From contig NZ_JAMKFE010000023.1 in assembly GCF_023721835.1 (NCBI RefSeq), forward strand, positions 1-51,111: a stretch of 51,111 nt of DNA, read 5' to 3'. The stretch comes from Caldimonas mangrovi (GTDB lineage: Bacteria; Pseudomonadota; Gammaproteobacteria; Burkholderiales; Burkholderiaceae_C). Each line of letters starts with the position of its first letter. The first letter of the stretch is position 1. Below the pieces are notes generated by a model. The model had not been told where the DNA came from and ran no database searches. It saw nothing but the letters and a program-made list of their open reading frames with translations. This document shows, in pieces, positions 30,005 to 50,698 of this stretch. A program made the translations under genes and the position numbers.

Positions 30005-30150
30005 GAACACCGCGGATCCGGCTCCGCCGGTCCGCTGGTGTTGCCCCCTCGAGGGGGCCGAGCCCGGACTCGGACAGTCCCTGCGGACTGTCCGTGCCTG
30101 GCGAAGGGCCGGACCGTCCTCGGTCCGGCGCGGGCTGCAAGCCCGCGCAG
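30005..30150 (-). repeat. Hairpin-rich intergenic repeat, copy A
   Basis: The segment between the substrate-binding protein gene and livH contains four consecutive perfect stems: GCCCCCTC/GAGGGGGC at 30043-30058, CGGACAGTCC-CTGC-GGACTGTCCG at 30071-30094, GCCGGACCG-TCCT-CGGTCCGGC at 30108-30129 and GCGCGGGCT-GCA-AGCCCGCGC at 30128-30148. Its reverse complement matches copy B (40399-40540) closely over the whole length. Read in the direction of the operon it ends in the shared core GGAGCCGGATCCGCGG. Confidence 0.85.
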
Positions 30151-30168
30151 CGCGTACGGGGTGGGCCG

Positions 30169-31341
30169 TCAAAGCTTGCAGCCACGTGCCGGATCGGCCA
30201 GCCCTTTCACGGCGATGCTGACCGAGCGGTTGGTCTTGCCGTCGACCTTGCGCAGGTAGATGTCCTGCACCGGGTTGTGAGCCTTGGACATCGTGAACGG
30301 TCCGCGTGGACTGTCGATCTTGGCCTGCTCCATGCCCTTGACGAGCGCATCGCGGTTCTTGAAGTCGCCGCCGGCGGCCTTCAGGCCCGCAGCGAGCAAC
30401 TGCGCCGCGTCGTAGCCCTGCACCGCATACACGTCGGGCTGCAGCTTGTACGCCTTGGCGTAGCTGAAGCGGAACGAGCGGTCCTTCGGCAGCGTCAGGT
30501 CGTCGGCGTAGTGCAGCGTCGTGAACAGGCCCGAAGCGGCATCGCCCTGGGCTTCCAGCGTGCCGTCGGTGAGGAAGCCCGCGCCGTACAGCGGAATCTT
30601 GTCCTTCAGGCCGGCGGCGGCGTAGTCCTTGACGAACTTCACCGCTCCACCGCCTGCGAAGAACACGTACACCGCATCGGGCTTGAGCGCAGCGATCTCG
30701 GTCAGCAACGCCTGGAATTCGACGTTGGGGAAGGGCAGGTTCAGCTCTTTGATCACCTTGCCGCCCTTGGACTCAAAGCCTTCCTTGAAGCCGCGCACCG
30801 ACTCGTCGCCGGCGGCGTACTTCCAGGTCAGCGTCACCGCGGTTTTGTGCTTGCGCTGTTCGGCCGCGACCAGCCCCATCGCGTACGCGGGTTGCCAGTT
30901 GGTGAACGAGCTGCGGAAGATGTTCGGCGCACACAGCGGCCCGGTGATCGCGTCGGCGCCGGCGTTCGGCACGATCAGCAGCGTGTTGTTGTCCTTCGCG
31001 ACCTTGGCCATGCCCATCGCGACGCCGGAGTGCACCGTGCCGACCAGCACGTCGACCTGGTCGCGCTTGACCAGCTTGTTGGCGTTCTCGGGAGCCTTGG
31101 ACGGATCCGACTCGTCGTCGACCTTGAAGTATTCGATCTCCTTGCCGGCCAGCTTGCCGCCTTGCTCTTGCACATACAGGCGAAAGCCGTTCTCGATCGC
31201 GGTGCCGAGCGCGGCGTACGTGCCGGTGTAGGGCAGCATCAGCCCGACCTTGATCTTGTCTTGTGCCTGCGCGCCGGCGGCAAGCGAGAAGGCCAGCGTC
31301 GCGGTCGCGACGAGCGGGAGGGAGCGTCGAGCAGTCAACAT
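30169..31341 (-). CDS. ABC transporter substrate-binding protein (aromatic-acid type)
   Basis: The 390-residue periplasmic binding protein has a signal peptide (cleavage after AGAQA, about residue 26). It has the type I Leu/Ile/Val-binding fold, starting KIKVGLMLPYTGTYAALG. The sequence resembles binding proteins found with benzoate and other aromatic-acid clusters. It captures the substrate for the LivHMGF permease encoded immediately downstream. The gene follows the alpha/beta hydrolase after 18 bases. Ligand identity is inferred from the neighbouring benzoate genes. Confidence 0.9.
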   Translation of the reverse strand: MLTARRSLPLVATATLAFSLAAGAQAQDKIKVGLMLPYTGTYAALGTAIENGFRLYVQEQGGKLAGKEIEYFKVDDESDPSKAPENANKLVKRDQVDVLVGTVHSGVAMGMAKVAKDNNTLLIVPNAGADAITGPLCAPNIFRSSFTNWQPAYAMGLVAAEQRKHKTAVTLTWKYAAGDESVRGFKEGFESKGGKVIKELNLPFPNVEFQALLTEIAALKPDAVYVFFAGGGAVKFVKDYAAAGLKDKIPLYGAGFLTDGTLEAQGDAASGLFTTLHYADDLTLPKDRSFRFSYAKAYKLQPDVYAVQGYDAAQLLAAGLKAAGGDFKNRDALVKGMEQAKIDSPRGPFTMSKAHNPVQDIYLRKVDGKTNRSVSIAVKGLADPARGCKL

Positions 31342-31359
31342 GGGTTGGTCTCCGTGTGG

Positions 31360-32199
31360 TTAGAAGGAAGCTCCGGTGAACTCCGGGGTCTTGTTCGTCA
31401 GGTGCCTGCGCATGAAGCCGGCCACCCCCTGCATCAGCTGCGCAGGCTGGTCGCGATGCGGCGCGTGACCGCAGTCGTCGAGCTTGAGCAGTTCGGCGCC
31501 AGGCACGGCCTGCGCGATGCCGTCGACCTGCGCCATCGTTCCGTACTCGTCGTCGTAGCCCTGGATCGCGAGCACCGGACAGCGGATCTGCGGCAGCAGC
31601 GCGCGAATGTCCCAATGCCGGAAGTCGGGGTCCAGCCACACGTCGTTCCAGCCCCAAAAGGCGGAGTCGGGGTCGGCGTGGTAGCGCGCCAGCTTGCTGC
31701 GCAGGTCGGTCGTGACATAGCCGTCCTTGGCTTTCTCGATGCTGGCGACGGTGAGGTCTTCGACGAAGATGTGCGGTGCGGCGACCACCAGGCCACCGAC
31801 ACGGTCGGGCTGCGCGGCCGCGTGAATCAGCGCGATCGAGCCGCCGTCGCTGTGGCCGTAGAACCAGGGCCGGTCCTTTGTGGTGTCGAGGTCGATCGCC
31901 TCGAAAAAGGCCGGCAGGAACGCGCGCGCCTGGTGGTGCATGAAATCGACCGGCCAGCGCTCGTGCAGCGCACGCGGGCTCGACAGCCCATAGCCCCAGC
32001 GCGACAGCACCAGGCCGCGGCAGCCGGCCGCTTCGCACAGCGCGCGGGGAAAGTCCTTCCACATCGCGACCGAGCCGAGCCCCTCGTGCAGGAACACCAG
32101 CAGTGGCCGGTCGTGCCGCTCGGGTGCGAGGTGCACGTACTCGATGCGGTCCTCGCGGCCGGACCAGCGCACCGAGGCGAACTGCGACGCAACATTCAT
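31360..32199 (-). CDS. Alpha/beta hydrolase of the benzoate operon
   Basis: The 279-residue hydrolase has the oxyanion loop FLHEGLGSVAMW, nucleophile serine in YGHSDGGSIAL, an acid in QGYDDEYG and histidine in DDCGHAPHRDQP. Such proteins are often found beside benzoate-CoA ligase in box clusters. Their role is unproven; hydrolysis of a dead-end CoA ester or of a benzoate ester is plausible. The ATG overlaps the ligase stop by four bases, so it is translated together with the ligase. No signal peptide is present. Confidence 0.85.
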   Translation of the reverse strand: MNVASQFASVRWSGREDRIEYVHLAPERHDRPLLVFLHEGLGSVAMWKDFPRALCEAAGCRGLVLSRWGYGLSSPRALHERWPVDFMHHQARAFLPAFFEAIDLDTTKDRPWFYGHSDGGSIALIHAAAQPDRVGGLVVAAPHIFVEDLTVASIEKAKDGYVTTDLRSKLARYHADPDSAFWGWNDVWLDPDFRHWDIRALLPQIRCPVLAIQGYDDEYGTMAQVDGIAQAVPGAELLKLDDCGHAPHRDQPAQLMQGVAGFMRRHLTNKTPEFTGASF

Positions 32200-33773
32200 G
32201 CGGCCGCTCCGGCCTGTTCGCGCTCGCGCAGCCGGAAGCGCTGGATCTTGCCGGTCGCGGTCTTCGGCAGCTCGTCGACGAACTCGATCGCGCGCGGGTA
32301 CTTGTGCGGCGCCAACCTGCTCTTGATGAAGGCCTTGAGTTCGGCCTCCAGCGACGCCCCTGCGGGGTGGCCCGGCTTGAGCACGACGAAGGCCTTGGTC
32401 TTGGTCAGCCCTTCGGCGTCCGCGACACCGATGACGGCGGCCTCCAGCACGCTCGGGTGTTGCACCAAGGTGGCTTCGACCTCGAACGGCGAGACGTACT
32501 GCCCGCTGACCTTCAGCATGTCGTCACTGCGGCCGGCGTAGGTGTAGTAGCCGTTCGTGTCGCGGCTGTACTTGTCACCGCTCTTGGTCCAGCCGCCCTG
32601 GAAGGTGTCGCGCGACTTGTCACGGTTGTTCCAGTACATCAGCGCCGCACTCGGGCCCCGGATGTAGAGGTCGCCGATCTCTCCGTCCGCAACGGCCTGG
32701 CCGTCCTCGCTGCGCAGCTCGATCTCGTAGCCTTCGACCGGCCGCCCGGTGGTGCCGTAGCGCACGTCGCCCGGGCGGTTCGACAGGAAGATGTGCAGCA
32801 TCTCGGTCGAACCGATGCCGTCGATGATCTCGCAGCCGAAATGCGCAGTGAAGCGCTCGCCGATCTCCTGCGGCAATGCCTCGCCGGCCGATGAACACAG
32901 GCGCAGCCCGACCTGCGAGCGAGCCGGCAGCGCCGGTGAAGCCAGCATGCCGGCATAGCCGGTGGGAGCGCCGCAGAAGACGGTCGGGCGGTGCTCGATC
33001 AGGCGCTTGAAACAGGCGTCCGGCGTCGGGCGTTCGGCCATCAGCACCACGCTCGCGCCCACGCTCAGCGGAAAGCTCAGTGCGTTGCCGAGGCCGTAGG
33101 CGAAGAACAGCTTGGCTGCGGAAAAGACCGTGTCGTTCTCGCTCATGCCGAGCACCGGCCTGGCGTAGAGCTCGGCGGTCCAGTACGGGTTGGCATGCGT
33201 GTGCACGGTGCCTTTCGGCCTTCCGGTGGAGCCGGACGAGTAGAGCCAGAAGGCTGGTTCGTCGGCCAGCGTCGGTGCCGACGTGGCCAGCGGCTGGTGC
33301 GCGGCCAGCAAGGCCTCGAGACCGTGAGCGCCCGCTGGCAGCCCGGTGGTCGGCCGTGCAACGATCAGTTGCTTCAGTTCGTGCGGCGTCTGCTGCATCG
33401 CGGCTTGCAGTGTCGGCAGCAGCGCCGCCGAAACGAGCGCTGCCTGGGCGCGGCTGTGCTCGAGCATGTAGGCGTAGTCGTCGGCGGTGAGCAGCGTGTT
33501 CACGGCCACCGGCACGATGCCCGCATACAGGCTGCCGAGGAAGCTCACGGGCCAGTCGCTGCAGTCGTGCATCAGCAGCAGCACGCGCTCCTCGCGCTTG
33601 AGCCCCAGCGCGCGCAGTGCGGCCGCCATGCACCGGATGCGCTCTGCCAGCGCCCCGTAGCTCAGCGAACCGTGATCGTCGATGTAGGCGGTCTTGCCGG
33701 CACGGCCAGCGTTCAGATCGATGAGGTGCTGCGCGAAGTTGAACTGCGGGCGCGGCGGTGCGGGCAGGCTCAT
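32196..33773 (-). CDS. bclA: Benzoate-CoA ligase
   Basis: The 525-residue ANL-family ligase has P-loop YSSGSTGRPKGTVHTH, the motif GIGSTEMLHIFLSNRPGDVRYG (19 of its residues are diagnostic of benzoate-CoA ligases) and the catalytic lysine in PKTATGKIQRFRLR. It activates benzoate with ATP and CoA to benzoyl-CoA, the first step of the box pathway. It sits between boxD (24-base gap) and the hydrolase (4-base overlap) in the leftward operon. Confidence 0.93.
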   Translation of the reverse strand: MSLPAPPRPQFNFAQHLIDLNAGRAGKTAYIDDHGSLSYGALAERIRCMAAALRALGLKREERVLLLMHDCSDWPVSFLGSLYAGIVPVAVNTLLTADDYAYMLEHSRAQAALVSAALLPTLQAAMQQTPHELKQLIVARPTTGLPAGAHGLEALLAAHQPLATSAPTLADEPAFWLYSSGSTGRPKGTVHTHANPYWTAELYARPVLGMSENDTVFSAAKLFFAYGLGNALSFPLSVGASVVLMAERPTPDACFKRLIEHRPTVFCGAPTGYAGMLASPALPARSQVGLRLCSSAGEALPQEIGERFTAHFGCEIIDGIGSTEMLHIFLSNRPGDVRYGTTGRPVEGYEIELRSEDGQAVADGEIGDLYIRGPSAALMYWNNRDKSRDTFQGGWTKSGDKYSRDTNGYYTYAGRSDDMLKVSGQYVSPFEVEATLVQHPSVLEAAVIGVADAEGLTKTKAFVVLKPGHPAGASLEAELKAFIKSRLAPHKYPRAIEFVDELPKTATGKIQRFRLREREQAGAAA

Positions 33774-33797
33774 GGGCGGTCTCCTCGGCGGGATCGG

Positions 33798-35366
33798 TCA
33801 GAACGTCAGGCGCGAGCCCGTGGCGGCGAGCCGCTCGATGGCGGCAGCACCGGCCTGCACGGCCGAACGCCGGTGATAGAAGTTCAGCGCGCGCAGGCCG
33901 CCGAGTTCCTCGCCGCCGCCGGCGCGGCCAGGGCCGCCGTGCAGCGACATCGGCATCACGTTGCCATGCCCGGTGTGCAGGCTCGCAACCTCGGGCGAGA
34001 CCGCGTGCACGCGGCCGTGGCTGTCGGCCAGCGCCGCTGCGGCTTCGGCGATCTGCTGCGGGTCCGTGCCGTAGACCGAAGCGACCAGCGAGCCTTCGCC
34101 CCGGCGGATCAGGGCCTGGGCTTCGCCCAGATCGCGATAGGGCAGCAGCGTCGCCACCGGGCCGAACACCTCGACCTCGTGCACCAGACTCGCAGCGTGG
34201 GCGTCGCGGGCGCCGAGCAGCGTCGGGCCCATGCAGGCGGCCACCGCCGGGTCGGCATCGACGATCGGGTGGGAGGCACCGTCGTGCAGCAGCTCGGCCT
34301 GCTCGCGCAGCTGCGCCAAGCCGGCACGCACGCCGTCGAGCTGCTCACGGCTCACCAGTGAGCCCATGCGCACGCCGTCGCTGCGCGGGTTGCCCACGGC
34401 AATGCCGCGCAGCTTGGCCGAGATCGCCTCGGCGATGGCGTCGTAGCAATGGCCCGGCACGAAAACACGCCGGATCGCGGTGCACTTTTGACCGGACCTG
34501 ACCGTCATTTCGCGCACCACCTCGCCGACCAGCAGCTCGAAGCTGGCGCTGCCCGGCGACGCGTCGGGCAGCAACAGCGCGGCGTTGAGGCTGTCGGCTT
34601 CGATGTTGACGCGCACCGAATGCCGCGTGACGGCCACGTGCGAGCGGATCAGCGCAGCGGTGTCGGCCGAGCCGGTGAAGGACACCACGTCGAAAGGCCG
34701 CAGGGGGTCCATCAAGCCCTTGGAGCTGCCGCAGACGATGGACAGCGCGCCCGGCGGCAGCACGCCGGCGGCCGTCACGTCGGCCACCATGCGCTGGGTC
34801 AGCCAGGCTGTGGCAGTCGCCGGCTTGACGACGACCGGCACGCCCGAGAGCAAGGCCGGTGCAGCTTTCTCCCACAGTCCCCAGGCCGGGAAGTTGAAGG
34901 CGTTGATGAACAGCGCCAGGCCGCGGACCGGGGTCAGCAGATGCTGCGACTGGAAGGTGCCGTCCTTGGCGAGCCGCATCGCGTCGCCGTCCAGCAGGGC
35001 GCGAGCATCGCCGAGCGACTCGCCCCATTTCGCGTACTGCGCCAGCGTGTAGAGCGCACCCTCGATGTCGACGCCCGAGTCCTTGCGCGTGGTGCCCGAG
35101 TTGGCCATCGAGATGTCGTAATAGGCTTCGCGATGGGCCTGCAGCACCTGACCCACCTCGGCGAGCAAGGCAGCGCGTTGGCGGTAGGTGAGGGCACGCA
35201 ATGCGGTGCCCCCGGTCTCGCGCGCATAGTCGAAGCCTTCGGCGAGGTCCAGCCCTTCGCTGCTGACCCGCGCGAGTTCGGTGCCCAGCACCGGGTCGAA
35301 CAGCGGTGTGCCGGGGCCGCTGCCGTGTTGCCAACGGCCGGCCAGATGATTGGAAAGCAGGTTCAT
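33798..35366 (-). CDS. boxD: 3,4-dehydroadipyl-CoA semialdehyde dehydrogenase
   Basis: The 522-residue aldehyde dehydrogenase is of the PaaZ-N/BoxD type. Visible motifs are the catalytic cysteine in VRSGQKCTAIRR, the general-base region VNIEADSLN and INAFNFPAWGLWEK for cofactor binding. In the box pathway it oxidises the semialdehyde released by BoxC to 3,4-dehydroadipyl-CoA using NADP. It lacks a C-terminal hydratase domain as in PaaZ, matching the single-domain box enzymes (also called boxZ in some species). Its start overlaps the DUF4863 stop by four bases. Confidence 0.9.
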   Translation of the reverse strand: MNLLSNHLAGRWQHGSGPGTPLFDPVLGTELARVSSEGLDLAEGFDYARETGGTALRALTYRQRAALLAEVGQVLQAHREAYYDISMANSGTTRKDSGVDIEGALYTLAQYAKWGESLGDARALLDGDAMRLAKDGTFQSQHLLTPVRGLALFINAFNFPAWGLWEKAAPALLSGVPVVVKPATATAWLTQRMVADVTAAGVLPPGALSIVCGSSKGLMDPLRPFDVVSFTGSADTAALIRSHVAVTRHSVRVNIEADSLNAALLLPDASPGSASFELLVGEVVREMTVRSGQKCTAIRRVFVPGHCYDAIAEAISAKLRGIAVGNPRSDGVRMGSLVSREQLDGVRAGLAQLREQAELLHDGASHPIVDADPAVAACMGPTLLGARDAHAASLVHEVEVFGPVATLLPYRDLGEAQALIRRGEGSLVASVYGTDPQQIAEAAAALADSHGRVHAVSPEVASLHTGHGNVMPMSLHGGPGRAGGGEELGGLRALNFYHRRSAVQAGAAAIERLAATGSRLTF

Positions 35367-35827
35367 GTACGGGTGAATTCGATGCGCCCTTCGGGCAGGA
35401 GATACAGCACCAGGGCGCGGCCCTGGCGGACGGTGGGCCGGTGTGCACTGCCCGGCGGATAGACCTTCCAGCCGGCCGGGCTGCCGTCGAAGCGGGCGTC
35501 GGGCGCCAGCGGCATGATCAGGTCGACCTCGCCGGTCGGATGGATGTGGTGAGGGCCGGCAACGTCGTCCATGTCGACGACGTCCACCGAAAAACCGTAG
35601 GTTTCAAGCGAAGGACGGATGACACGGCCGTAGCGGATGCCGTCGGCCTCGTGCTTGCACAGCCAGCCCTCGCGCACACCCGCCTCGCATGTCGCCTGCA
35701 TCTGCTGGAACCAGTCGGACCCCGGCCCGTGGGTCTGGTTCAGCCATGCCTGCAACCCGCCGTCCAGCGGCTGGCCGGAAAGGGCCTGCGTTATCGTTCG
35801 CACCAGGGCATGAAACTGCTCGCGCAT
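35363..35827 (-). CDS. DUF4863 family protein (4-hydroxylaminobenzoate lyase-like)
   Basis: The 154-residue cupin-like protein (HHIHPTGEVDLIMPL, then GWKVYPPGSAHRPTV, a pair of histidine-bearing strands) belongs to DUF4863. From memory, this family includes PnbB, a 4-hydroxylaminobenzoate lyase of nitrobenzoate degraders. It is the first gene of the leftward benzoate operon and overlaps boxD by four bases, so it is made with the core pathway. Its reaction here is unknown; detoxifying or rearranging a substituted benzoate is possible. The start at 35827 gives the family length; the open frame upstream runs into the promoter and boxR and is not coding. Confidence 0.8.
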   Translation of the reverse strand: MREQFHALVRTITQALSGQPLDGGLQAWLNQTHGPGSDWFQQMQATCEAGVREGWLCKHEADGIRYGRVIRPSLETYGFSVDVVDMDDVAGPHHIHPTGEVDLIMPLAPDARFDGSPAGWKVYPPGSAHRPTVRQGRALVLYLLPEGRIEFTRT

Positions 35828-35905
35828 TCGGGTCCTCGTTCCTTGCGATGCGGGGGCAAGCGCTTGCGGGCCGGCATCACATGAAGTATCGTGCATGTGT
35901 TGGGA

Positions 35906-35935
35906 ACAATACGCGGGTGATCTGATCCATGTCAA
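35906..35935 (-). promoter_or_regulatory. Promoter of the leftward benzoate operon with TGCA motif
   Basis: On the minus strand a perfect -35 TTGACA (35935-35930) and -10 TATTGT (35911-35906) are 18 bases apart, about 80 bases upstream of the DUF4863 start. A TGCA motif at 35892-35895 lies just past the predicted start of transcription, and another at 35945-35948 lies upstream. The -10 is identical to that of the boxC promoter. TGCA elements are, from memory, the core of BzdR/BoxR operators. Confidence 0.7.
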
Positions 35936-36018
35936 GAAAAATAATGCATGCTCGGGTAAATACCGAGGACGGCCGCACAGCTTCTGCTGACGCCGCGAAA
36001 GGGCAACACACCGTGGAC

Positions 36019-36924
36019 ATGACCGAACTGAACACTGATGCAGGGGCGGCGAAAGACTCCTTTCTGGTCGCACTCGGCGAGCGCATACGCACGGTGCGTG
36101 CACGGCGAGGCCTGACCCGCAAGGAAACGGCATTGGCCGCGGACGTCTCAGAGAGGCACCTGGCCAATCTGGAGCTGGGCACCGGCAATGCATCGATCCT
36201 GGTGTTGAACCAGGTGGCCCAGGCACTGCAGTGCTCGCTGGCAGAGCTGCTCGGTGATGCAACGACGTCGTCGCCGGAGTGGCTGATGATCCGGGAGCTG
36301 TTGGAGGGCCGCTCCGAGGCGGATCTGCATCGGGCGCGCCAGAAGCTGGTCGAGCTGTTCGGATCGGGCGGCGACAAGCACTCGCGCCAATCGCGCATTG
36401 CCCTGGTCGGCCTGCGCGGCGCAGGCAAGTCGACCCTGGGTCGCATGCTGGCCGAAGACCTGGGCTTCCCGTTCGTCGAGTTGAGCCGCGAGATCGAGAA
36501 GGTCGCGGGGTGCAGCATTGTCGAGATCCACTCGCTGTACGGCACCAACGCCTACCGGCGCTACGAGCGCCGCGCCCTCGAGGAGACCGTGCAGATCTAC
36601 CCCGAGGTGGTCATTGCCACGCCCGGCGGCATCGTTTCCGACGCGGCCACCTTCAATCTCCTGCTGTCGCATTGCTACACGGTGTGGCTGCAGGCCGAAC
36701 CCGAGGACCACATGAAACGCGTGGTCGCGCAGGGCGATTTCCGGCCGATGTCCGGCAGCCGGGAGGCCATGGACGACTTGAAGCGCATCCTGGCCGGGCG
36801 CGCAGCCTTCTATGCCAAGGCCGACCTCAGCTACAACACCAGCGGACATTCGCTCGAGGCCAGTTTTGCGGGCCTGCGTACCGCGGTCCGCGATGCGGTG
36901 GGGCTGATGGACTGGACGGCCTGA
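36019..36924 (+). CDS. boxR: BoxR/BzdR-type regulator (HTH + shikimate-kinase-like domain)
   Basis: The 301-residue regulator has an XRE-type helix-turn-helix (LTRKETALAADVSERHLANL) and a C-terminal shikimate-kinase-like domain with P-loop GLRGAGKSTLGR and an intact fold that serves as benzoyl-CoA sensor in this family. BoxR represses box genes until benzoyl-CoA binds. The ATG at 36019 gives the usual family length of about 300. In-frame ATGs at 35929 and 35944 would add up to 30 residues, but the first overlaps the -35 of the divergent promoter and none has a clear ribosome binding site. It lies between the two box transcription units that it should control. Confidence 0.88.
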   Translation: MTELNTDAGAAKDSFLVALGERIRTVRARRGLTRKETALAADVSERHLANLELGTGNASILVLNQVAQALQCSLAELLGDATTSSPEWLMIRELLEGRSEADLHRARQKLVELFGSGGDKHSRQSRIALVGLRGAGKSTLGRMLAEDLGFPFVELSREIEKVAGCSIVEIHSLYGTNAYRRYERRALEETVQIYPEVVIATPGGIVSDAATFNLLLSHCYTVWLQAEPEDHMKRVVAQGDFRPMSGSREAMDDLKRILAGRAAFYAKADLSYNTSGHSLEASFAGLRTAVRDAVGLMDWTA

Positions 36925-36930
36925 CGGCCT

Positions 36931-37008
36931 GTCCCCTGCGGCCTTCGTCGGCCCCTCACGGGGCGGCACCGACGGAACGGCACAGCCGGATCCCTGGCGG
37001 CACTGGCG
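36931..37008 (+). repeat. Hairpin repeat, diverged copy E (boxR-boxC gap)
   Basis: The segment after boxR matches the later copies in order: a CCCTGCGGCCTTCG lead, the stem GCCCCTCACGGGGC (36951-36964), then a GACGGAACGGC-like stretch and the core AGCCGGATCCCTGGCGGCACT. It is more diverged than the other copies. Confidence 0.6.
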
Positions 37009-37170: not shown

Positions 37171-37191
37171 TGCGCCGACAGGAGCCTTCAG

Positions 37192-38850
<1,659 letters not shown>

Positions 38851-40372: not shown

Positions 40373-40398
40373 TAGCGACCATCCCTATGGCCTGCGGC

Positions 40399-40540
40399 GG
40401 CTTGCAGCCCGCGCCGGACCGGGGACGGTCCGACTCTTCGCCAGGCACGAACAGTCCGCAGGGACTGTTCGTGTCCGGCTCAGCCCCCTGCAAGGGGGCG
40501 ACACCACGCGGACCGACGGAGCCGGATCCGCGGTGTCCAC
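40399..40540 (+). repeat. Hairpin-rich intergenic repeat, copy B (boxB-boxA gap)
   Basis: This copy matches the reverse complement of copy A almost end to end, with stems CGAACAGTCC-GCAG-GGACTGTTCG (40448-40471), GCCCCCT-GCA-AGGGGGC (40483-40499) and GGACCG-GGGA-CGGTCC near 40415. Several differences from copy A are paired changes that keep the stem. It ends in the shared core GGAGCCGGATCCGCGG, reading in the direction of the box operon. Confidence 0.85.
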
Positions 40541-40593: not shown

Positions 40594-41874
40594 ATGGACA
40601 TGGCGACGCAGACGGTCATCATCAAGCAGCACCTGATCGACCCCGAGATCTGCATCCGCTGCAACACCTGCGAGGCCACGTGCCCGATCGGCGCGATCAC
40701 GCATGACGACCGCAACTACGTGGTGAAGGCGGACGTGTGCAACGGCTGCATGGCTTGCGTACCGCCATGCCCGACCGGTGCGATCGACAACTGGCGCCAG
40801 ATGCCGAAGGCGCTCGCCTATTCGATCGAGGCGCAGCTCGGCTGGGACGAATTGCCGCCCGAGCTGAGCGACGACCAGCTCGCGGCCGCGGGGGTGGACA
40901 TGGCGCAGGCCGAGGTGTCGCTGGCGCCGGGCGCTGCCGCGATGCCAGCGTCGAACACGGCCGGCGATTCGCCGCTGAACGCCGCTGCGTATGGCGCCAC
41001 GGTGCCGCCGTGGTCGGCGGCACATGCGTATACCAATCTCTATGGCCCCAAGAGCCCGACTACCGCCACCGTGGCGGGCAACTTCAAGGTCAACGAGGCC
41101 GGCACCGAGAACGAGACCCATCACATCGTGCTGGACTTCGGCGCCATGCCGTTCCCGGTGCTGGAGGGGCAGTCGATTGCGATCGTGCCGCCGGGCGCCG
41201 ACGCCCACGGCAAGCCGCATCACGCCCGCCAATACTCGATTGCCAGCCCGCGCAACGGCGAGCGCGCCGGCTACAACAACGTCTCGCTGACCGTGAAGCG
41301 CGTGACGGCCGATCACCAGGGACGCCCCGTGCGGGGCATCGCATCGAACTACCTGTGCGACCTGAAGGTGGGCGACACGGTGCAGGTGATCGGGCCGTTC
41401 GGCACCAGCTTCCTGATGCCCAACCACCCCCGTTCGAACATCGTGATGGTGTGCACCGGCACCGGCAGCGCACCGATGCGCGCGATGACCGAATGGCGGC
41501 GGCGCCTGCGTGCCGGCGGAAAGTTCGAAGGCGGCAAGCTGATGCTGTTCTTCGGGGCACGCACGCAGCAAGAACTGCCGTATTTCGGCCCGTTGATGAA
41601 GCTGCCCAAGGACTTCATCGACGTCAACCTGGCCTTCTCGCGCACGCCCGGGAGCCCGAAACGCTATGTGCAGGACCTGATGCGAGAGCGCGCGGCCGAC
41701 CTGGCGGGGCTGCTCGCGAGCCCGGACACCTACGTCTATGTCTGCGGGCTGAAGAGCATGGAAGAGGGCGTGTTGCTGGCGCTGCGCGAGGTGGCGCTGC
41801 AGGCGGGGCTGCCATGGGAAACGCTGGGCGCGACCTTCAAGCGCGAAGGGCGGCTGCACCTGGAGACCTACTAG
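40594..41874 (+). CDS. boxA: Benzoyl-CoA 2,3-epoxidase reductase BoxA
   Basis: The 426-residue iron-sulfur flavoprotein has two N-terminal 4Fe-4S clusters ([16 protein letters not shown] and [16 protein letters not shown]). A ferredoxin-NADP reductase-like part follows: FAD motif [12 protein letters not shown] loop [12 protein letters not shown] and C-terminal [13 protein letters not shown]. It passes electrons from NADPH to BoxB. The start at 40594 is the family N-terminus ([20 protein letters not shown]); the long open frame upstream crosses the repeat and is not coding. Confidence 0.95.
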
Positions 41875-41880
41875 CCCAGC

Positions 41881-41943
41881 ACGCTTCGCGCGCCCCTCAA
41901 GGGGCGACGCCAGCGGACCGGCGCCGGATCGGCGGCGTCACTC
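41881..41943 (+). repeat. Hairpin repeat, short copy C (boxA-hydratase gap)
   Basis: This short form has the stem CGCCCCT-CAA-GGGGCG (41899-41913 region), AGCGGACCGGC, the core GCCGGATCGGCGG and the tail CACTCGG. It is the same modules and order as copies D1 and D2, in the direction of the operon. Confidence 0.7.
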
Positions 41944-41976
41944 GGATTGTCCGATTCATGTACTGGTGATGTTTCG

Positions 41977-44288: not shown

Positions 44289-44297
44289 CGGGCCGTC

Positions 44298-44927: not shown

Positions 44928-44973
44928 CGGAGCTGCCTCATCGGAAAGCCGGGGATTATCCAGCATGGAACCA

Positions 44974-44991
44974 TACACATATGTATGTGTA
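44974..44991. promoter_or_regulatory. TetR operator 1 (tetR side)
   Basis: TACACATA-TG-TATGTGTA is an 18-bp inverted repeat just upstream of tetR, next to its likely promoter. It differs from operator 2 at a single base. AT-rich palindromes of this size between a tetR gene and a divergent operon are typical TetR binding sites. Confidence 0.75.
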
Positions 44992-45044
44992 CGGGGGCAA
45001 ACCCCGATGCAGATCATGGGCAACATAACTAGCATTTCTTTCCA

Positions 45045-45062
45045 TACACATGTGTATGTGTA
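45045..45062. promoter_or_regulatory. TetR operator 2 (ligase side)
   Basis: TACACATG-TG-TATGTGTA is the second copy, 71 bases centre to centre from the first (close to seven helical turns). It ends 11 bases before the ligase ATG, so a bound repressor would block the start of the operon. A shifted register, CATACACA-TGTGTATG (45043-45058), is a perfect 16-bp palindrome. Confidence 0.75.
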
Positions 45063-45073
45063 TGGAGACAGGA

Positions 45074-46876
45074 ATGATCCAAGGATGCTTCGAAGATCCC
45101 GGCATGCTGGCGCCGGCGCGCACCGTGAAGATCGACTTCGATGGCGGCGCCTTCGTGCTGCGTTCGCCCGAGCCGCTGCGGCCATATGCCCGTTGCGTCG
45201 GCGAATGGCTCGAGCACTGGGCCGAGCACACGCCTGACGCACCGGCACTCGCCGAACGCGATGAGCAAGGCGAGTGGCGCGTGCTGACCTGGTCTGCGTT
45301 GCGCCGCCTGGTCGGCTCGGTGGCGCAAAGTCTGCTGGGACTCAGGCTGCCGCCGGCCAAGCCCGTGGTCGTGCTGTCCGACAACGCCATGGACCACGCA
45401 CTGCTGATGTTGGCGACGATGCACATCGGCCGCGCGGTCTGCACGGTATCGAGCGCCTATTGCCGACTGACGAGGGACTACAGCAAGGTGCACGGCATCC
45501 TGGGCACGCTCGACCCCGCGCTGGTGTATGCCTCGGACTCGGCCATCTACGGTGCGGCGGTGAGCAGCGCACGGCTCGACGCGGTGGCGGTGTTCAGCCG
45601 CGGCGCCGAAGCCTGCCCCGGCGCCCTGGCGTTCTCGAGCCTGACCCGCACGATCGAAAGCGACGAGGTGCGCACCGCCTTCGAGGCCATCCTGCCCGAC
45701 ACGCCGGCCAAATACCTGCTGACATCCGGGTCGACCGGGCACCCGAAGGTCGTCGTCAACACGCACCGCATGCTGTGCGCCAACCAGCAGATGATCGCGC
45801 AGGTGTGGCGCTTCCTGGAGCAGGAGAAGCCTGTCGTGCTCGACTGGCTGCCCTGGAGCCACACCTTCGGCGGCAACCACAACATGAATCTGGTGTTGCG
45901 CCACGGCGGCACCCTCTACATCGACGACGGCCGCCCCGCACCGGGCCTTGTCGACAAGACAGTGCGCAACCTGCGCGAGGTGCGCCCGACGCTGTACTTC
46001 AACGTGCCGCGCGGCTTCGACATGCTGCTGCCGTACCTGGAGTCCGACGAGGCGCTGGCACGCGGCTTCTTCTCGGGGCTGCGCATGCTCTTCTACGCCG
46101 GGGCCGCGCTGCCGCAAGCCACCTGGGAGCGGCTGCAGGCCGTCGCGCGCAAGGTGCGTCGGGAGCCGGTGTGGTTCACCACCTCATGGGGTTCGACCGA
46201 GACGTCGCCGGCGGTCACCAATGCACATTGGCAGCTCGACCGCGCCGGCTGCCTGGGGCTGCCGCTGCCGGGCATGGAGCTGAAGTTCGTGCCCAACGGC
46301 GAGAAGCTCGAGCTGCGCGTGCGAGGCGTGTCGGTGTTTCCCGGGTATCGCAACGCCCCGGACCTCACCGCGCAGGCCTTCGACGACGAGGGCTACTACA
46401 AGATCGGCGACGCGGGCTACCTCGTCGACCCAGACCGGCCCGAGCGCGGCGTCGTCTTCAATGGCCGCGTGACCGAGGACTTCAAGCTCACGACCGGCAC
46501 CTGGGTGTCCGTGGGCACCTTGCGCGTGAAGGTGGTCTCGGCGCTGGCGCCGCTGGCGCAGGACGTGGTCGTCACCGGGCACGACCGCGACGAGATCGGC
46601 GTGCTGATCTTCTTGCAGCCCGCCGCGCGCGAACTGCCGCCCGAAGAGCTCAAAGCCCGCGTGCGCGACGCGCTGCTGAGCCTGCGTGCCGACGGCGGCG
46701 GCTCGTCACAGGCGCCGGCACGGGCGCTGCTGCTGCCCGATGCGCCGGATGCCGATGCCGGCGAGATCACCGACAAGGGTTACGTGAACCAGCGTGCGGT
46801 GCTGACCCGCCGTGCCGCCGACGTCGCCGCGCTGTACGCAGGCGGGGCCGACCCGCGCGTCGTGCTCGCCCGATGA
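45074..46876 (+). CDS. Feruloyl-CoA synthetase-like aromatic acid CoA ligase
   Basis: The 600-residue ANL-family ligase has P-loop LLTSGSTGHPKVVVN, the motif WFTTSWGSTETSPAVT and a C-terminal part (FNGRVTEDFKLTTGTWVSVG) characteristic of the feruloyl-CoA synthetase branch. It would activate a hydroxycinnamate or a similar phenylpropenoid acid to its CoA ester. The ATG at 45074 has GGAG six bases upstream; in-frame ATGs at 45050-45062 fall inside the operator. It is the first gene of the TetR-controlled operon. The true substrate cannot be fixed from sequence. Confidence 0.82.
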   Translation: MIQGCFEDPGMLAPARTVKIDFDGGAFVLRSPEPLRPYARCVGEWLEHWAEHTPDAPALAERDEQGEWRVLTWSALRRLVGSVAQSLLGLRLPPAKPVVVLSDNAMDHALLMLATMHIGRAVCTVSSAYCRLTRDYSKVHGILGTLDPALVYASDSAIYGAAVSSARLDAVAVFSRGAEACPGALAFSSLTRTIESDEVRTAFEAILPDTPAKYLLTSGSTGHPKVVVNTHRMLCANQQMIAQVWRFLEQEKPVVLDWLPWSHTFGGNHNMNLVLRHGGTLYIDDGRPAPGLVDKTVRNLREVRPTLYFNVPRGFDMLLPYLESDEALARGFFSGLRMLFYAGAALPQATWERLQAVARKVRREPVWFTTSWGSTETSPAVTNAHWQLDRAGCLGLPLPGMELKFVPNGEKLELRVRGVSVFPGYRNAPDLTAQAFDDEGYYKIGDAGYLVDPDRPERGVVFNGRVTEDFKLTTGTWVSVGTLRVKVVSALAPLAQDVVVTGHDRDEIGVLIFLQPAARELPPEELKARVRDALLSLRADGGGSSQAPARALLLPDAPDADAGEITDKGYVNQRAVLTRRAADVAALYAGGADPRVVLAR

Positions 46877-46901
46877 ATCATCACTTCTTCCAGGAATGCG
46901 C

Positions 46902-47705
46902 ATGAACTTCCAACCGGTGCCCGGCCTGCTGGCTCAATTGCCGCTGCTGCGCGCGCAGGCCGATGGCCCCATCGTGCACCTGCAGCTGGCGCGGCCCGAC
47001 AAGCGCAACGCGATCAACGATGAACTCGTCGCGCAAATCCATACCGCGTTTGTCAACCTGCCCGCCCAGGCACGGGTGGCGATCGTCAGCGGGGAGGGCG
47101 AGCACTTCTGTGCCGGGCTCGACCTGTCGGAGTTGAACGAACGCGACGTCGGCGAAGGCATCGAGCATTCGCGGCGCTGGCACGCAGCGTTCGAGCAGGT
47201 GCAGTTCGGCCGCGTGCCGGTGATCGCGGTGCTGCATGGCGCGGTGGTCGGCGGCGGGCTGGAACTGGCAGCGTCGGCGCATTTGAGGGTCGCCGAACCC
47301 TCGGCTTTCTACGCGCTTCCCGAGGGGCAGCGCGGCATCTTCGTCGGAGGCGGCGGCTCGGCGCGCATTCCGCGCCTGGTGGGCGTCTCGACCATGACCG
47401 ACATGATGCTCACCGGCCGTGTGCTCGATGCGCACGAGGGCCACTCGGCCGGCTTGTCTCACTACCTCGTCGAAGCCGGCGCCGGGCTCCGGCATGCGAT
47501 GCAGCTGGCCCGCAAGGTGGCCACCAACGCGCCGCTGTCGAACTTCGCCGTGATGCACGCCTTGCCCCGCATCGCCGACATGGCCCAGGGCGACGGGCTG
47601 TTCGTCGAATCGCTGATGTCGGCGATTGCGCAAGGCGACGACGCCGCCAAACAGCGCGTGCGGGATTTTCTGGAAAAGCGCGCGGCCAAGGTGGGCGTGG
47701 CATGA
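46902..47705 (+). CDS. Enoyl-CoA hydratase/crotonase family protein
   Basis: The 267-residue crotonase has oxyanion-hole segments HFCAGLDLSEL and LHGAVVGGGLELAAS and the acid region PEGQRGIFVGGGGSARIP. In this operon it should hydrate the unsaturated aromatic acyl-CoA made by the ligase, either as a plain hydratase before thiolysis or as a hydratase-lyase that releases an aldehyde. The presence of a thiolase favours the first. It starts 25 bases after the ligase stop. Confidence 0.85.
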   Translation: MNFQPVPGLLAQLPLLRAQADGPIVHLQLARPDKRNAINDELVAQIHTAFVNLPAQARVAIVSGEGEHFCAGLDLSELNERDVGEGIEHSRRWHAAFEQVQFGRVPVIAVLHGAVVGGGLELAASAHLRVAEPSAFYALPEGQRGIFVGGGGSARIPRLVGVSTMTDMMLTGRVLDAHEGHSAGLSHYLVEAGAGLRHAMQLARKVATNAPLSNFAVMHALPRIADMAQGDGLFVESLMSAIAQGDDAAKQRVRDFLEKRAAKVGVA

Positions 47706-47723
47706 CACCGGACAGGAACTGAG

Positions 47724-48974
47724 ATGGCATCCAAAGGCATGTTCGACGGCTTCGAGGGGGTCTGGCTGCTCGACGGCGTGCGCACCCCGATGGTCGACTA
47801 CTGCGGCGCGTTGGCCAGCGTGTCGCCCACGGACCTGGGCATCAAGGTGGCGCGCGAGATCCTGGCGCGCACGGACATTCCCCCTGCGCAGGTCGATCAG
47901 GTGCTGGCCGGCAGCATGGCGCCCGGCGACTTCGACCAGTTCTACCTGCCGCGGCACATCGGCCTGTATGCCGGCGTGCCGCTCGAGGCGCCGGCCTTGA
48001 TGGTGCAGCGCATCTGCGGCACCGGTTTCGAGCTGTTCCGCCAGGCCGGGCACCAGATCGAAGCCGGTGGGACCGAGACGGTACTGGTGGTCGGCACCGA
48101 ATCGATGTCGCGCAACCCGATCGCCGCCTTCGAGCACCGGCAGGGCTTCAAGCTCGGTGCGCCGATCGGGTTCAAGGACTACATGTGGGAGGCGCTGAAC
48201 GACTCGGCTCCTGCCATCTCGATGATCCATACGGCAGAAAACCTGGCACGCAGCTACGGCCTCACCCGCGGGGAGGTCGACAGCTACGCGGCGCGTTCGT
48301 TCGAACGGGCCGTGCGGGCACAGTCGGCCGGCTGGTTCGACGGCGAGATCGTTCCGGTGCGCGACGAGCGCTTCGAACTGGAAGGCTATCGGCCGCGGGG
48401 CATACGCCTGTCGGGCAAGACAGAGGAAGTTGCCGCGGACACCCACCCGCGGCCGTCGTCGGTGGAGGTGCTGGCCAAGCTGCGGCCGGTGTACCCCGGT
48501 GGCGTTCAGACCGGCGGCAACAGTTCGGCGCTGACCGACGCCGCTGCCGCTGCCGTGGTGGCGTCGACACCCGCAATGCAGCGCTGGGGCAGGCGGCCGC
48601 TGGCGCGCGTGGCAGCCGCCGCTGTCGTGGGCGTGCGGCCAGAGGTCATGGGCATCGGCCCTGCACCCGCGATCCGGCTGCTGCTGGAACGCACCGGGCT
48701 GCGGCTCGACGACATCGCGCGCTTCGAGATCAACGAGGCACAGGGCGCGCAAACCCTGGCCGTGCAGCGCGAATTGGGGCTCGACGAAGCACGCCTGAAC
48801 GTGCATGGCGGTGCGATCGCGCTGGGCCATCCCCTCGCGGCCACCGGCGTGCGGCTGACCGTCACCGTGGCGCGGCAGCTGCGCGAGGCGCAGGCGCGCT
48901 GGGGCGTCGCCGCCGCTTGCATCGGCGGAGGCCAGGGCATTGCGCTGCTGCTCGAGAACATGGAGGCCGCATGA
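47724..48974 (+). CDS. Thiolase (acyl-CoA acetyltransferase)
   Basis: The 416-residue thiolase has the nucleophilic cysteine C98 in MVQRICGTGF, histidine in HGGAIALGHPL and the second cysteine in ACIGGGQG, with NEAQGAQ in the usual place. All catalytic residues are present. It would cleave the 3-oxo aromatic acyl-CoA to acetyl-CoA and a shortened aroyl-CoA. It starts 18 bases after the hydratase and overlaps the thioesterase by four bases. Confidence 0.9.
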   Translation: MASKGMFDGFEGVWLLDGVRTPMVDYCGALASVSPTDLGIKVAREILARTDIPPAQVDQVLAGSMAPGDFDQFYLPRHIGLYAGVPLEAPALMVQRICGTGFELFRQAGHQIEAGGTETVLVVGTESMSRNPIAAFEHRQGFKLGAPIGFKDYMWEALNDSAPAISMIHTAENLARSYGLTRGEVDSYAARSFERAVRAQSAGWFDGEIVPVRDERFELEGYRPRGIRLSGKTEEVAADTHPRPSSVEVLAKLRPVYPGGVQTGGNSSALTDAAAAAVVASTPAMQRWGRRPLARVAAAAVVGVRPEVMGIGPAPAIRLLLERTGLRLDDIARFEINEAQGAQTLAVQRELGLDEARLNVHGGAIALGHPLAATGVRLTVTVARQLREAQARWGVAAACIGGGQGIALLLENMEAA

Positions 48975-49384
48975 GCCGGGCCACCACGTTCGCGGTGCAG
49001 GTGCAGTTCGGCGACTGCGACCCAGCCGGCATCGTGTTCTTTCCGAACTTCTCGCGCTGGATGGACGCTGCGTCACTGCACTTCTTCGTGCAGTGCGGCG
49101 TGCCGCCCTGGCGCGAACTCGTCAAGACGACCGGGATCATCGGCACGCCGCTGCTCGAGATCCACACCCGCTTCCTGCAGCCGGCCACTTACGGCGAGAC
49201 CCTGGAGGTGCACACCGACATCGAGGAGTGGCGCCGCAAAGTCTTCATCCAGCGACACCGCGTGATGCGGAACGAGACCCTGCTGTGCGAGGGCCGCGAA
49301 ACGCGTGCCTTTTGCATCCGCGATGCCGAGGGGCGCCTCAGATCGATCCCCGTTCCCGACGACATCCGCACCTTGTGCGCATGA
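48971..49384 (+). CDS. 4-hydroxybenzoyl-CoA thioesterase-like hotdog thioesterase
   Basis: The 137-residue 4HBT-family protein has QVQFGDCDPAGIVFFPNF. The aspartate D17 sits where the catalytic Asp of Pseudomonas 4-hydroxybenzoyl-CoA thioesterase lies. It would hydrolyse an aroyl-CoA to the free acid and CoA. Coupling to the thiolase by an ATGA overlap implies that the thiolase product is its substrate, so the operon would end with release of a free aromatic acid such as a hydroxybenzoate. Confidence 0.88.
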   Translation: MSRATTFAVQVQFGDCDPAGIVFFPNFSRWMDAASLHFFVQCGVPPWRELVKTTGIIGTPLLEIHTRFLQPATYGETLEVHTDIEEWRRKVFIQRHRVMRNETLLCEGRETRAFCIRDAEGRLRSIPVPDDIRTLCA

Positions 49385-49418
49385 ACTTTCCCTGACCCGA
49401 AGACGAAGGAGACAATCC

Positions 49419-50555
49419 ATGAAAGCTGTATTCAAGGCCGGCCTGGCTGTCATCGCGGTGGCCACCTCCGGCACGGCACTGGCCGACCTCACGATCGGCG
49501 TGGTGCTGCCGCTCACCGGGCCGGCCTCCGGCCTCGGCATCCCGATGCAGAACGGCTTCAAGCTATGGCCGCAGACGATTGCGGGCGAGAAAGTGCGGCT
49601 GGTCATCCTGGACGACGCCACCGACCCGAGCAAGGGGGTGCAGAACGCTCGCCGCCTGGTGACCGAGGACAAGGTCGACGTGTTGATGGGCTCCGGCGCG
49701 ACGCCGGTGGCCATTCCGATGGCCGATGTGGCGGCCGAGGCCAAGACACCGCACCTGGCGATGTCGCCGGCGCCTCTGCCGGCCGGCAAGGACCACTGGA
49801 CGTTCCGGCTGCCGCAGTCCAACGGCGTGATGGCGAACGCGATCGTCGCGCACATGCAGAAGTCCGGCGTCAAGACGGTGGGTTTCATCGGCTACACCGA
49901 TGCGTACGGCGAATCGTGGCTGCAGGAACTCAAGCCGCGGCTCGAGAAGGCGAGCATCCAGCTGGTCGCCACCGAGCGTTTTGCACGTGCCGACACCAGT
50001 GTGACGGCCCAGGCGCTCAAGCTCACGTCCGCCAACCCGGATGCCATGGTCATCGTCGCCTCGGGCTCGGGCGCTGCCATGCCGCAATTGGCGCTGGTGG
50101 ACCGCGGGTACAAGGGCAAGTACTACCAGACCCATGCCGCGGCCACGCGTGACCTGATGCGCGTCGGCGGCAAGGCGGTGGAGGGCACCTTCGTGTCGTC
50201 GGGGCCGGTGGTGGTGGCCGAGCAGCTGTCCGACGAGCACCCGTCCAAGGCGCAGGGCCTGAAGTTCGTGCAGGCCTACGAAAAAATGTTCGGTGCCGGC
50301 ACGCGCAACCAGCTGGCTGCACATTCCTATGACGGCCACCTGCTGCTGGAACAGGTGGTGCCGGTCGCGCTGAAGAAGGCGCAACCGGGCACGCCGGAGT
50401 TCCGTGCCGCGCTGCGCGACGCGATCGAGAACGCGCAGGCCGTCGCCGTCAGCCATGGCGTGCTCGACTTCAGCCCGACCGACCACTGGGGATTCCGGCC
50501 CGACACCGGCGTGATCATGAAGGTGGTCAATGGGGACTGGCGGCTGGAGAGATAA
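49419..50555 (+). CDS. ABC transporter substrate-binding protein of the ligase operon
   Basis: The 378-residue periplasmic binding protein has a signal peptide ending GTALA (about residue 22) and the type I fold (DLTIGVVLPLTGPASGLG, later FIGYTDAYGESWLQEL). It is clearly different from the benzoate-operon binding protein. It probably captures the aromatic acid handled by the ligase. A GAAGGAG box precedes the ATG. The gene is 34 bases after the thioesterase and is followed by two tandem repeat copies and a livH-type permease. Confidence 0.9.
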   Translation: MKAVFKAGLAVIAVATSGTALADLTIGVVLPLTGPASGLGIPMQNGFKLWPQTIAGEKVRLVILDDATDPSKGVQNARRLVTEDKVDVLMGSGATPVAIPMADVAAEAKTPHLAMSPAPLPAGKDHWTFRLPQSNGVMANAIVAHMQKSGVKTVGFIGYTDAYGESWLQELKPRLEKASIQLVATERFARADTSVTAQALKLTSANPDAMVIVASGSGAAMPQLALVDRGYKGKYYQTHAAATRDLMRVGGKAVEGTFVSSGPVVVAEQLSDEHPSKAQGLKFVQAYEKMFGAGTRNQLAAHSYDGHLLLEQVVPVALKKAQPGTPEFRAALRDAIENAQAVAVSHGVLDFSPTDHWGFRPDTGVIMKVVNGDWRLER

Positions 50556-50613
50556 GCCCACCCCTGCGGGCTTCGCCCGCCCCTCAAGGGGCGCCGCTGG
50601 CGGACCGGCAGGG
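50556..50613 (+). repeat. Hairpin repeat, short copy D1
   Basis: This is the first of two tandem short copies: CCCCTGCGGGCTTCGCCCG, then the stem CGCCCCT-CAA-GGGGCG, then TGGCGGACCGGCAGG. It starts directly at the stop of the binding protein gene. Confidence 0.75.
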
Positions 50614-50614
50614 A

Positions 50615-50698
50615 TGGGCTCACCCCTACGGCCTTCGGCCGCCCCTCGAGGGGCGCCACCAGCGGACCGGCAGAGCCGGATCCGCGGCGGCACTCGGA
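50615..50698 (+). repeat. Hairpin repeat, copy D2 (tandem with D1)
   Basis: The second tandem copy is more complete: CCCCTACGGCCTTCGGCCG, stem CGCCCCTCGAGGGGCG, AGCGGACCGGCAGAGCC, core GGATCCGCGGCGG and tail CACTCGG. The inner stems of D1 and D2 differ by changes that keep pairing. Confidence 0.8.

What the first reader, a model, noticed from the sequence alone, without database searches (positions are those of the whole stretch)
30005..50698. Family of transcript-oriented hairpin repeats within the aromatic-acid clusters
Six copies of one modular repeat sit in five gaps between co-directional genes: binding protein|livH (A, 30005-30150), boxR|boxC (E, 36931-37008), boxB|boxA (B, 40399-40540), boxA|hydratase (C, 41881-41943) and binding protein|livH of the second cluster (D1 and D2, 50556-50698). 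Shared modules are a CCCCT...AGGGG stem, an AGCGGACCGGC block and the core GAGCCGGATCCGCGG. Every copy reads the same way relative to transcription: A is on the minus strand in a minus-strand operon and the others are on the plus strand. I saw no copy in the first 26 kb. They could be mRNA processing or stability elements that set different levels of neighbouring genes, or a mobile REP-like element that lands in operon gaps.
Basis: partly seen in the sequence, partly recalled or inferred. Interest (0 to 1): 0.72.

Follow-up and report, generated by a model that had tools for sequence, protein, structure and literature searches.

The report
Hairpin repeats parked behind stop codons
About a hundred copies of a short three-hairpin DNA repeat sit in this bacterium, most of them immediately behind the stop codons of genes and pointing the way the gene is read; the repeat is a REP-like element (probably the poorly known "BRE" of Bordetella and relatives), and its strict placement suggests that it both spreads to gene ends and shapes the messages it sits in.

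Summary
The window holds exactly six copies in the five gaps named, all reading with transcription; the genome holds about 110. A unit is about 82 nt: a C-rich leader and three hairpins with strong compensatory change. Of 108 own copies, 101 have the upstream gene in sense, and 78 of these start within 10 nt of its stop codon against 15 expected. In 108 copies from other, titled records 89 have a sense stop codon at the 5' side and 10 an antisense one at the 3' side; shifted controls give 5 of 631. Six more own copies start just behind an intrinsic terminator. In Achromobacter, copies split what look like ancestral ATGA gene overlaps. The genome has no Y1 (RAYT) transposase match. Best reading: a REP-like, non-autonomous repeat, probably BRE (Hot et al. 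2011; its letters were not available, so unproven), that enters gene ends and acts as a transcribed hairpin behind the terminating ribosome. The RNA effect is inferred and the way it moves is unknown.

The parts
30001..30080 (-). Copy A, conserved part (hairpins 2 and 3), between substrate-binding protein gene (30169-31341, -) and permease gene (29063-29932, -)
   Evidence: R1 67.3 bits; sequence; fold z -2.97
30081..30168 (-). Long 5' part of copy A: C-rich leader directly behind the stop codon plus extra hairpins, of a form shared with B and several other genome copies
   Evidence: 30005-30150 folds at z -5.85; similar long form read at C23:194719, C52:52238, C6:151458, C2:124219
36926..37006 (+). 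Copy E, decayed, directly behind the boxR stop codon (36922-36924)
   Evidence: R1 45.2 bits; fold z +0.42
40373..40447 (+). Long 5' part of copy B, directly behind the boxB stop codon
40448..40542 (+). Copy B, conserved part, boxB|boxA gap
   Evidence: R1 49.8 bits; fold z -4.39
41875..41944 (+). Copy C, shortened hairpin 3, boxA|enoyl-CoA hydratase gap (the R1 match begins 8 nt earlier, inside boxA)
   Evidence: R1 65.4 bits at 41867-41944; fold z -2.07
50554..50614 (+). Copy D1, cut within hairpin 3, at the stop codon (50553-50555) of a substrate-binding protein gene
   Evidence: R1 37.4 bits; fold z -2.50
50616..50696 (+). Copy D2, full, head-to-tail behind D1
   Evidence: R1 88.3 bits (D2 is one of the 24 seeds of R1); fold z -3.53
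30169..31341 (-). Substrate-binding protein gene upstream of A
   Evidence: Peripla_BP_6 E 2.9e-80
29063..29932 (-). Permease gene downstream of A
   Evidence: BPD_transp_2 E 1.3e-33
36013..36924 (+). boxR-type regulator upstream of E
   Evidence: NF006015 anaerobic benzoate catabolism regulator E 4e-136
37192..38850 (+). boxC downstream of E
   Evidence: TIGR03222
38945..40372 (+). boxB upstream of B
   Evidence: TIGR03225
40594..41874 (+). boxA between B and C
   Evidence: TIGR03224
49305..50555 (+). Substrate-binding protein gene upstream of D1
   Evidence: Peripla_BP_6 E 7.7e-46

Best explanation
It is a family of REP-like, non-autonomous interspersed repeats, probably the Beta-proteobacterial repeat element (BRE). 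A unit is a C-rich leader plus three hairpins. Shown by sequence: its 5' side lies against a sense stop codon in most copies (less often just behind an intrinsic terminator), and its fold is kept through compensatory change. Supported by comparison: copy number differs widely between relatives, and copies have been gained at gene junctions, two of them formerly ATGA overlaps. Inferred: once there it is transcribed with the upstream gene and works like the REP of malE-malF (recalled). Hairpin 1 starts a median 13 nt behind the stop codon, at the edge of a terminating ribosome (footprint recalled), so the structure can shield the upstream message from 3'-5' decay and lower or uncouple translation of the next gene. 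How copies move is unknown.
For: Copy number and core beyond chance. Structure: 95.4% of cells pair, 252 double changes against a mean of 79 in shuffles and 5-44 in slid controls. Orientation 101 of 108; codirectional gaps 61 to 2. Stop adjacency (within 15 nt) in 51 of 65 codirectional and 28 of 36 convergent own copies; in 17 other genomes 67 of 74 sense and 54 of 74 near a stop; in the titled set 89 of 108 against 10 of 108 at the other end and 5 of 631 shifted. Stop-to-hairpin distance 7-18 nt in 62 of 67 measured cases. Gain: ATGA overlaps at site 1 in 6 of 6 genomes of three other genera, copies in 21 of 27 Achromobacter genomes read. Four window gaps are empty in a congener. Binding-protein families are somewhat commoner upstream than downstream, 6-8 of 60 against 2 of 61, the malE-malF pattern, not significant.
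Against: No RNA data. Six to seven own copies lie behind intrinsic terminators, where they would be outside most of the upstream message, yet they keep the same orientation. Copies are patchy: eight congeners have 0-8 against 77 in the own genome in the same capped search, so no copy is essential to the group. Wobble counts do not settle RNA against DNA: 58 G-U against 24 A-C in hairpin 3, but 46 of the 58 come from one position. No general target duplication in 69 own sites. Eight of 14 non-Achromobacter genomes read at site 1 have spacers rather than the overlap, so the history there is not simple. The covariation alignment was fitted to the model structure.
Confidence: 0.5

Rival explanations
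1. A selfish element whose insertion machinery targets gene 3' ends (stop codons and terminator ends) in a transcription-defined direction; it does nothing for the host.
For: Sense orientation persists behind terminators (6 of the 30 own copies without an adjacent stop, against 14 of 648 shifted positions, p 1e-4). Stop adjacency is as strong in convergent gaps, 28 of 36 copies, where no downstream promoter forces it, as in codirectional ones, 51 of 65. Patchy copy number. TAG stop codons are enriched at filled ends, 24 of 89 against 29 of 280, as if the 5' border sometimes supplies the stop.
Against: No transposase identified; no target duplication in the own genome; fold kept through compensatory change, though a ssDNA intermediate could explain that too.
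Confidence: 0.32
2. A transcription terminator or attenuator without a U-tract, used as a main or back-up terminator.
For: Sits where terminators sit, also behind existing terminators and in convergent gaps.
Against: None of 108 own copies has TTTT in the 15 nt behind it (13 of 432 positions further downstream do). Intrinsic-terminator-like sites are not clearly depleted where a copy is present: convergent 6 of 24 (1 of 6 with copies on both strands) against 3 of 10, codirectional 9 of 59 against 16 of 83 (small, and drawn only from loci fetched for the element). It lies inside box, liv and hom-thrC operons.
Confidence: 0.12
3. A classical REP mobilised by a RAYT (Y1 transposase).
For: Palindromic, interspersed, at gene ends like GTAG and CGTC REPs (PMC3733652, passages read). 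Y1 domains are common in the relatives, 40 of 60.
Against: No PF01797 match in the own genome nor in copy-rich G019 and G028. A Y1 match is present in 20 of 27 sampled genomes with copies and in 20 of 33 without (p 0.41). None of 12 Y1 loci fetched, six of them from genomes with copies, has a copy within its roughly 3 kb. No conserved GTAG or CGTC tag seen in the alignments.
Confidence: 0.08

Closest known systems
BRE, Beta-proteobacterial repeat element (Hot et al. 2011, PMC3110155; abstract, section 14 and passages read)
   Same: About 90 bp (75-91), interspersed in Bordetella, Comamonadaceae and one Rhodocyclaceae genome; tandem copies of variable number; the 13 loci of its Table 3 are codirectional or convergent, none divergent; the taxa found here fit that spread
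   Different: Its letters are in a figure and supplement that were not available, so identity is not proven, and the species of its Table 2 were not searched by name here. Mean GC 69% there (63.7-78.9), 66-84% in the own copies. No structure, stop-codon anchoring or strict orientation is described in the section read; some BREs are said to lie inside coding sequences
Bor repeats of Bordetellae (Petrillo et al. 2006, PMC1590033; passages read)
   Same: Short REP-like stem-loops close to coding regions, mRNA stabilisation proposed
   Different: 26-30 bp only; consensus is in a figure not held, so a match to hairpin 3 is a guess
GTAG and CGTC REPs / REPINs (PMC3733652, passages read)
   Same: Lie next to ORF 3' ends in codirectional and convergent gaps; GTAG termini often supply a TAG stop codon
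   Different: 20-40 bp palindromes with an unpaired terminal tag, in many families paired head to head; here an 82-nt oriented three-hairpin unit without a conserved tag
E. coli REP within 15 nt of a stop codon (Liang et al., known here only as cited in PMC12306157; passages read)
   Same: Structure at the edge of a terminating ribosome; said to stall ribosomes and lower translation
   Different: 446 of 4,072 E. coli REPs (about 11%) in that paper's count; here most copies

Membership tests
BRE | 75-91 bp repeat in Bordetella and other Betaproteobacteria | tested here: met
   82-nt model; titled hits in Bordetella petrii, Bordetella sp. BOR01, Achromobacter, Pigmentiphaga, Methylibium, Rubrivivax, Piscinibacter, Xylophilus
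BRE | Sequence identity to B. pertussis coordinates 3605317-3605401 | not testable with these tools
   No published letters in the held text; I recognised no genome of that strain among the handles
BRE | Tandem arrays; codirectional or convergent gaps | tested here: met
   Array at C23:312361-312974 and close-spaced copies in G271 and G133; 92 of 99 own gaps are sense codirectional or convergent
BRE | Mean GC about 69% (63.7-78.9) | tested here: inconclusive
   Own copies 66-84%, higher on the whole; ranges overlap
REP (GTAG/CGTC) | 20-40 bp hairpin with unpaired GTAG or CGTC tag at one end | tested here: not met
   Read from alignments: unit of three hairpins starting CCACCCC(C); the ends of the last stem vary (GGCGTC, GGTGTT, GGCATC, GGTGGC)
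REP/REPIN | RAYT gene in the genome, flanked by copies | tested here: not met
   (PF01797 only; 12 loci checked for flanking copies)
REP (functional sense) | Transcribed hairpin that alters mRNA decay or translation | not testable with these tools
   Needs RNA data
Intrinsic terminator | GC hairpin followed by a T-tract | tested here: not met
   0 of 108 own copies with TTTT in the next 15 nt
Rfam families | Match above gathering score | tested here: not met
   0 matches in the window (other loci not searched)

The most novel reading that the evidence does not exclude
A mobile element, with no RAYT, whose insertion itself is aimed at the ends of genes (behind stop codons and behind terminator T-tracts) and whose direction is set by transcription, through a transcription- or RNA-coupled integration route not yet described; by splitting ATGA overlaps it repeatedly turns translationally coupled genes into separately tunable ones.
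Probability: 0.2. Interest if true: 0.8.

Novelty: new variant of a known kind. Interest (0 to 1): 0.5.

Why it matters
REPs are known to lie near gene ends. A family with near-complete strand polarity and a near-fixed distance to the stop codon, in copy-rich genomes of at least two bacterial families, makes two open questions testable: how such repeats spread where no RAYT is found, and whether hairpins at the edge of the terminating ribosome are used to set ratios between neighbouring operon genes.

Tried and rejected
Target duplications as a general rule: rejected for the own genome (mean scores 6.1 against 5.9 for mispaired flanks in 44 codirectional sites and 6.6 against 6.0 in 25 convergent sites). 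At the Achromobacter junctions the right flank resembles the end of the upstream gene (site 2: up to 12 of 15 letters before the start codon in genomes with a spacer; site 1: 9-16 of 21), but a Shine-Dalgarno-like sequence would resemble it anyway; suggestive only.

RAYT mobility: not supported. Terminator replacement: not supported. Strand-specific wobble test: inconclusive. I lowered the best explanation from 0.55 to 0.5 for this and raised the selfish-element rival from 0.3 to 0.32. Phage or plasmid spread: an exact 22-nt core is in 3 stretches of the viral collection and one copy used as query matches 3 of 72,556 plasmid records, so neither looks like a main vehicle. Group II intron or attC relatedness was considered from memory (bulge in the last hairpin, position behind stop codons and terminators) and dropped for lack of any motif seen; it was not tested by a search. 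A link to aromatic metabolism was dropped, since copies are genome-wide.

Rows dropped before counts: 2 of 110 own matches (26.1 and 27.5 bits); 7 of 115 matches before (three of L324, whose scores look like duplicates of L297; two tandem copies of L339; two partial matches, L279 and L319). One copy of the titled set (L316, Achromobacter sp. Root83) is also. One search used 69 of 108 own copies (near a stop, 45 bits or more, right flank long enough). One search measured 67 of the 79 copies near a stop. The hairpin-3 table used 166 of 212 sequences.
Full report
Observation. The six copies are real. R1, a covariance model from 24 copies of the own genome, D2 among them, finds in the window D2, A, C, B, E and D1, with nothing else better than E 0.065. 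Each reads with the flanking genes. The window is a whole contig of a 5.52-Mb genome in 53 contigs. The genome has 94 places of the 24-nt core at up to three mismatches against four for the reversed pattern, and 110 matches to R1 at E up to 0.1 (150 of 9754 candidates were scored). No Rfam family matches the window.

Anatomy. A typical unit reads CCACCCC(C)TA, a 4-5 bp hairpin with a three-base loop, a CCCC(C)-GGGG(G) hairpin, and a long hairpin with core GCGGACCGGC-NNA-GCCGG-A-TCCGC. Across 98 own copies 95.4% of cells pair, 16 of 26 pairs have double changes, and there are 252 double-change cells against a mean of 79 in shuffles and 5-44 in slid controls (the alignment was fitted to the model, which favours it). 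The asymmetric internal loop of hairpin 3 occurs mainly as A/AT (107) or C/TT (35) among 166 of 212 own and other sequences that could be parsed. A and B belong to a longer form with extra 5' hairpins, which also starts directly behind a stop codon. Head-to-tail arrays occur, for example five copies at C23:312361-312974 at about 133-nt spacing.

Placement in the own genome. I called genes with a codon-usage model of my own. Of 108 copies, 101 have the upstream gene in sense: 65 with a codirectional and 36 with a convergent next gene; 5 lie in divergent gaps and 2 are antisense in codirectional gaps. Counted by independent gap these are 61, 31, 5 and 2 of 99. Of the 101, 78 start within 10 nt of the stop codon where a uniform position in the gap predicts 15.2; within 15 nt lie 51 of 65 codirectional and 28 of 36 convergent copies. 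A second test that needs no gene chain finds a coding sense ORF ending at the 5' side in 78 of 108, at the 3' side on the other strand in 5 of 108, and at shifted positions in 4 of 648. Of the 30 others, 6 start right behind an intrinsic terminator (shifted positions 14 of 648; p 1e-4), 10 are long-form or tandem copies behind a stop codon, and 14 are unresolved, at least four of these being copies inside the C23:312361 array. One of the 14 (C23:88295) also follows a T-run by eye. Hairpin 1 begins 7-18 nt behind the stop codon in 62 of 67 measured cases, median 13. TAG stop codons are enriched at filled ends, 24 of 89 against 29 of 280.

Placement elsewhere. In 74 copies of 17 other genomes, 67 have a sense upstream gene and 54 lie within 15 nt of its stop. 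In 108 copies from loci found by an exact core pattern in titled records (96 stretches), 89 have a sense stop at the 5' side, 10 an antisense stop at the 3' side, and shifted positions give 5 of 631; no terminator was scored at the 5' side in this set. The gene table of a Variovorax plasmid agrees: by extrapolation the copy starts about 15 nt behind an annotated gene on the same strand. On a Methylibium plasmid a partial match overlaps an annotated transposase gene on the other strand, which does not fit.

Spread. In the own family 27 of 36 sampled genomes have copies; one representative each of 24 other families has none, although two of those families (f3, f4) are positive when more members are sampled (13 of 399 genomes of the order at a shallow depth). 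One genus of f4 has 6-136 copies in 6 of 6 species. Eight congeners of the window's genome have 0-8 copies where the same capped search gives 77 for the own genome.

Gain of copies. Four window gaps were compared with congeners. In G008 all four orthologous gaps are empty, by eye and by R1. G007 has a copy directly behind the stop codon of boxB in one of its box clusters but not in the other. In an aminotransferase-homoserine dehydrogenase-threonine synthase operon of Achromobacter (Pfam), both junctions of the empty form are 4-bp ATGA overlaps. Site 1 was read in 27 Achromobacter genomes: 21 filled, 6 empty; the table shows the same split in three more. At site 2, R1 finds copies in 8 of the 26 fetched besides the query, and 12 of the 26 show the overlap. 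Of 14 genomes of other genera read, site 1 has the ATGA overlap in all 6 of g102, g202 and g187, and a spacer in all 8 of g172 and g189; site 2 has overlapping or abutting genes in 10 and a spacer in 4. Only G528 among the 14 holds a copy, at site 1; three of its relatives carry a different hairpin repeat there. I read this as an ancestral overlap with later gain, but the g172 and g189 spacers show that the junction also opens without this repeat. G452 and G440 have spacers at site 2 without a copy, so loss or decay also occurs.

Mobility. The own genome has no PF01797 protein. Of 60 relatives 40 have one: 20 of 27 with copies and 20 of 33 without (p 0.41); copy-rich G019 and G028 have none. 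None of 12 such loci fetched has a copy nearby. No general target duplication is seen. The mechanism of spread is therefore open.

Function. Upstream genes include 6-8 of 60 with substrate-binding protein families (two of them in the window) against 2 of 61 downstream, and downstream genes include 5 of 61 with BPD_transp_2 permeases against at most 1 of 60 upstream (only 25 families are listed in each). Neither contrast is significant (p 0.05-0.2), and the background rate of such pairs in the genome was not measured. This recalls malE-REP-malF. The position at the edge of a terminating ribosome recalls E. coli REPs within 15 nt of stop codons (PMC12306157, passages). Copies behind terminators do not fit a pure mRNA-stabiliser role; they fit either targeting of gene ends or a back-up terminator. 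Terminator-like sites are not clearly depleted where copies sit, and no copy of 108 is followed by TTTT within 15 nt.

Known or new. The repeat is REP-like in behaviour. GTAG and CGTC REPs also hug ORF 3' ends and can supply TAG stops (PMC3733652, passages). It fails two defining REP features tested here, the terminal tag and the RAYT link. It is probably BRE (PMC3110155): similar size, taxa, tandem habit and gap types, though its GC is higher on the whole. A second hairpin repeat (GGTGTC...GACACC) occurs in 10 of the 96 titled loci, all Bordetella petrii, and in none of the own loci fetched, so it fits the published BRE spread less well. In what I saw of seven paper searches there was no description of the strict orientation or stop-codon anchoring of this family; most subscription papers are not held.

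Noticed in passing
L415, L416, L418 (G526, G527, G532), junction aminotransferase|homoserine dehydrogenase: A different hairpin repeat (AGGTGTC...GACACC type) occupies the same operon junction that holds the main repeat in Achromobacter and G528; the junction looks like a hot spot for hairpin repeats.
   Followed up: partly
G000:C23:451261-451495 (L084): The second of two tandem copies is preceded by a 22-bp near-duplicate (21 of 22) of the upstream gene's end including its TAG stop codon, so tandem growth seems to copy the gene end together with the element.
   Followed up: partly
G000:C23:312361-312974 (L105): Five-copy array at about 133-nt spacing whose unit combines hairpin 3 with what reads like an intrinsic terminator (GC hairpin then T-run).
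   Followed up: no
L183 (G007:C86), boxR|boxC gap: This congener's boxR-boxC gap is several hundred bases long, holds no R1 match, and by eye carries an insert flanked by inverted sequences.
   Followed up: no
L201 and L205: Two copies not behind a called stop codon share the upstream sequence GATAGTGACAGTCAT in two different genomes, perhaps another anchor or another repeat.
   Followed up: no
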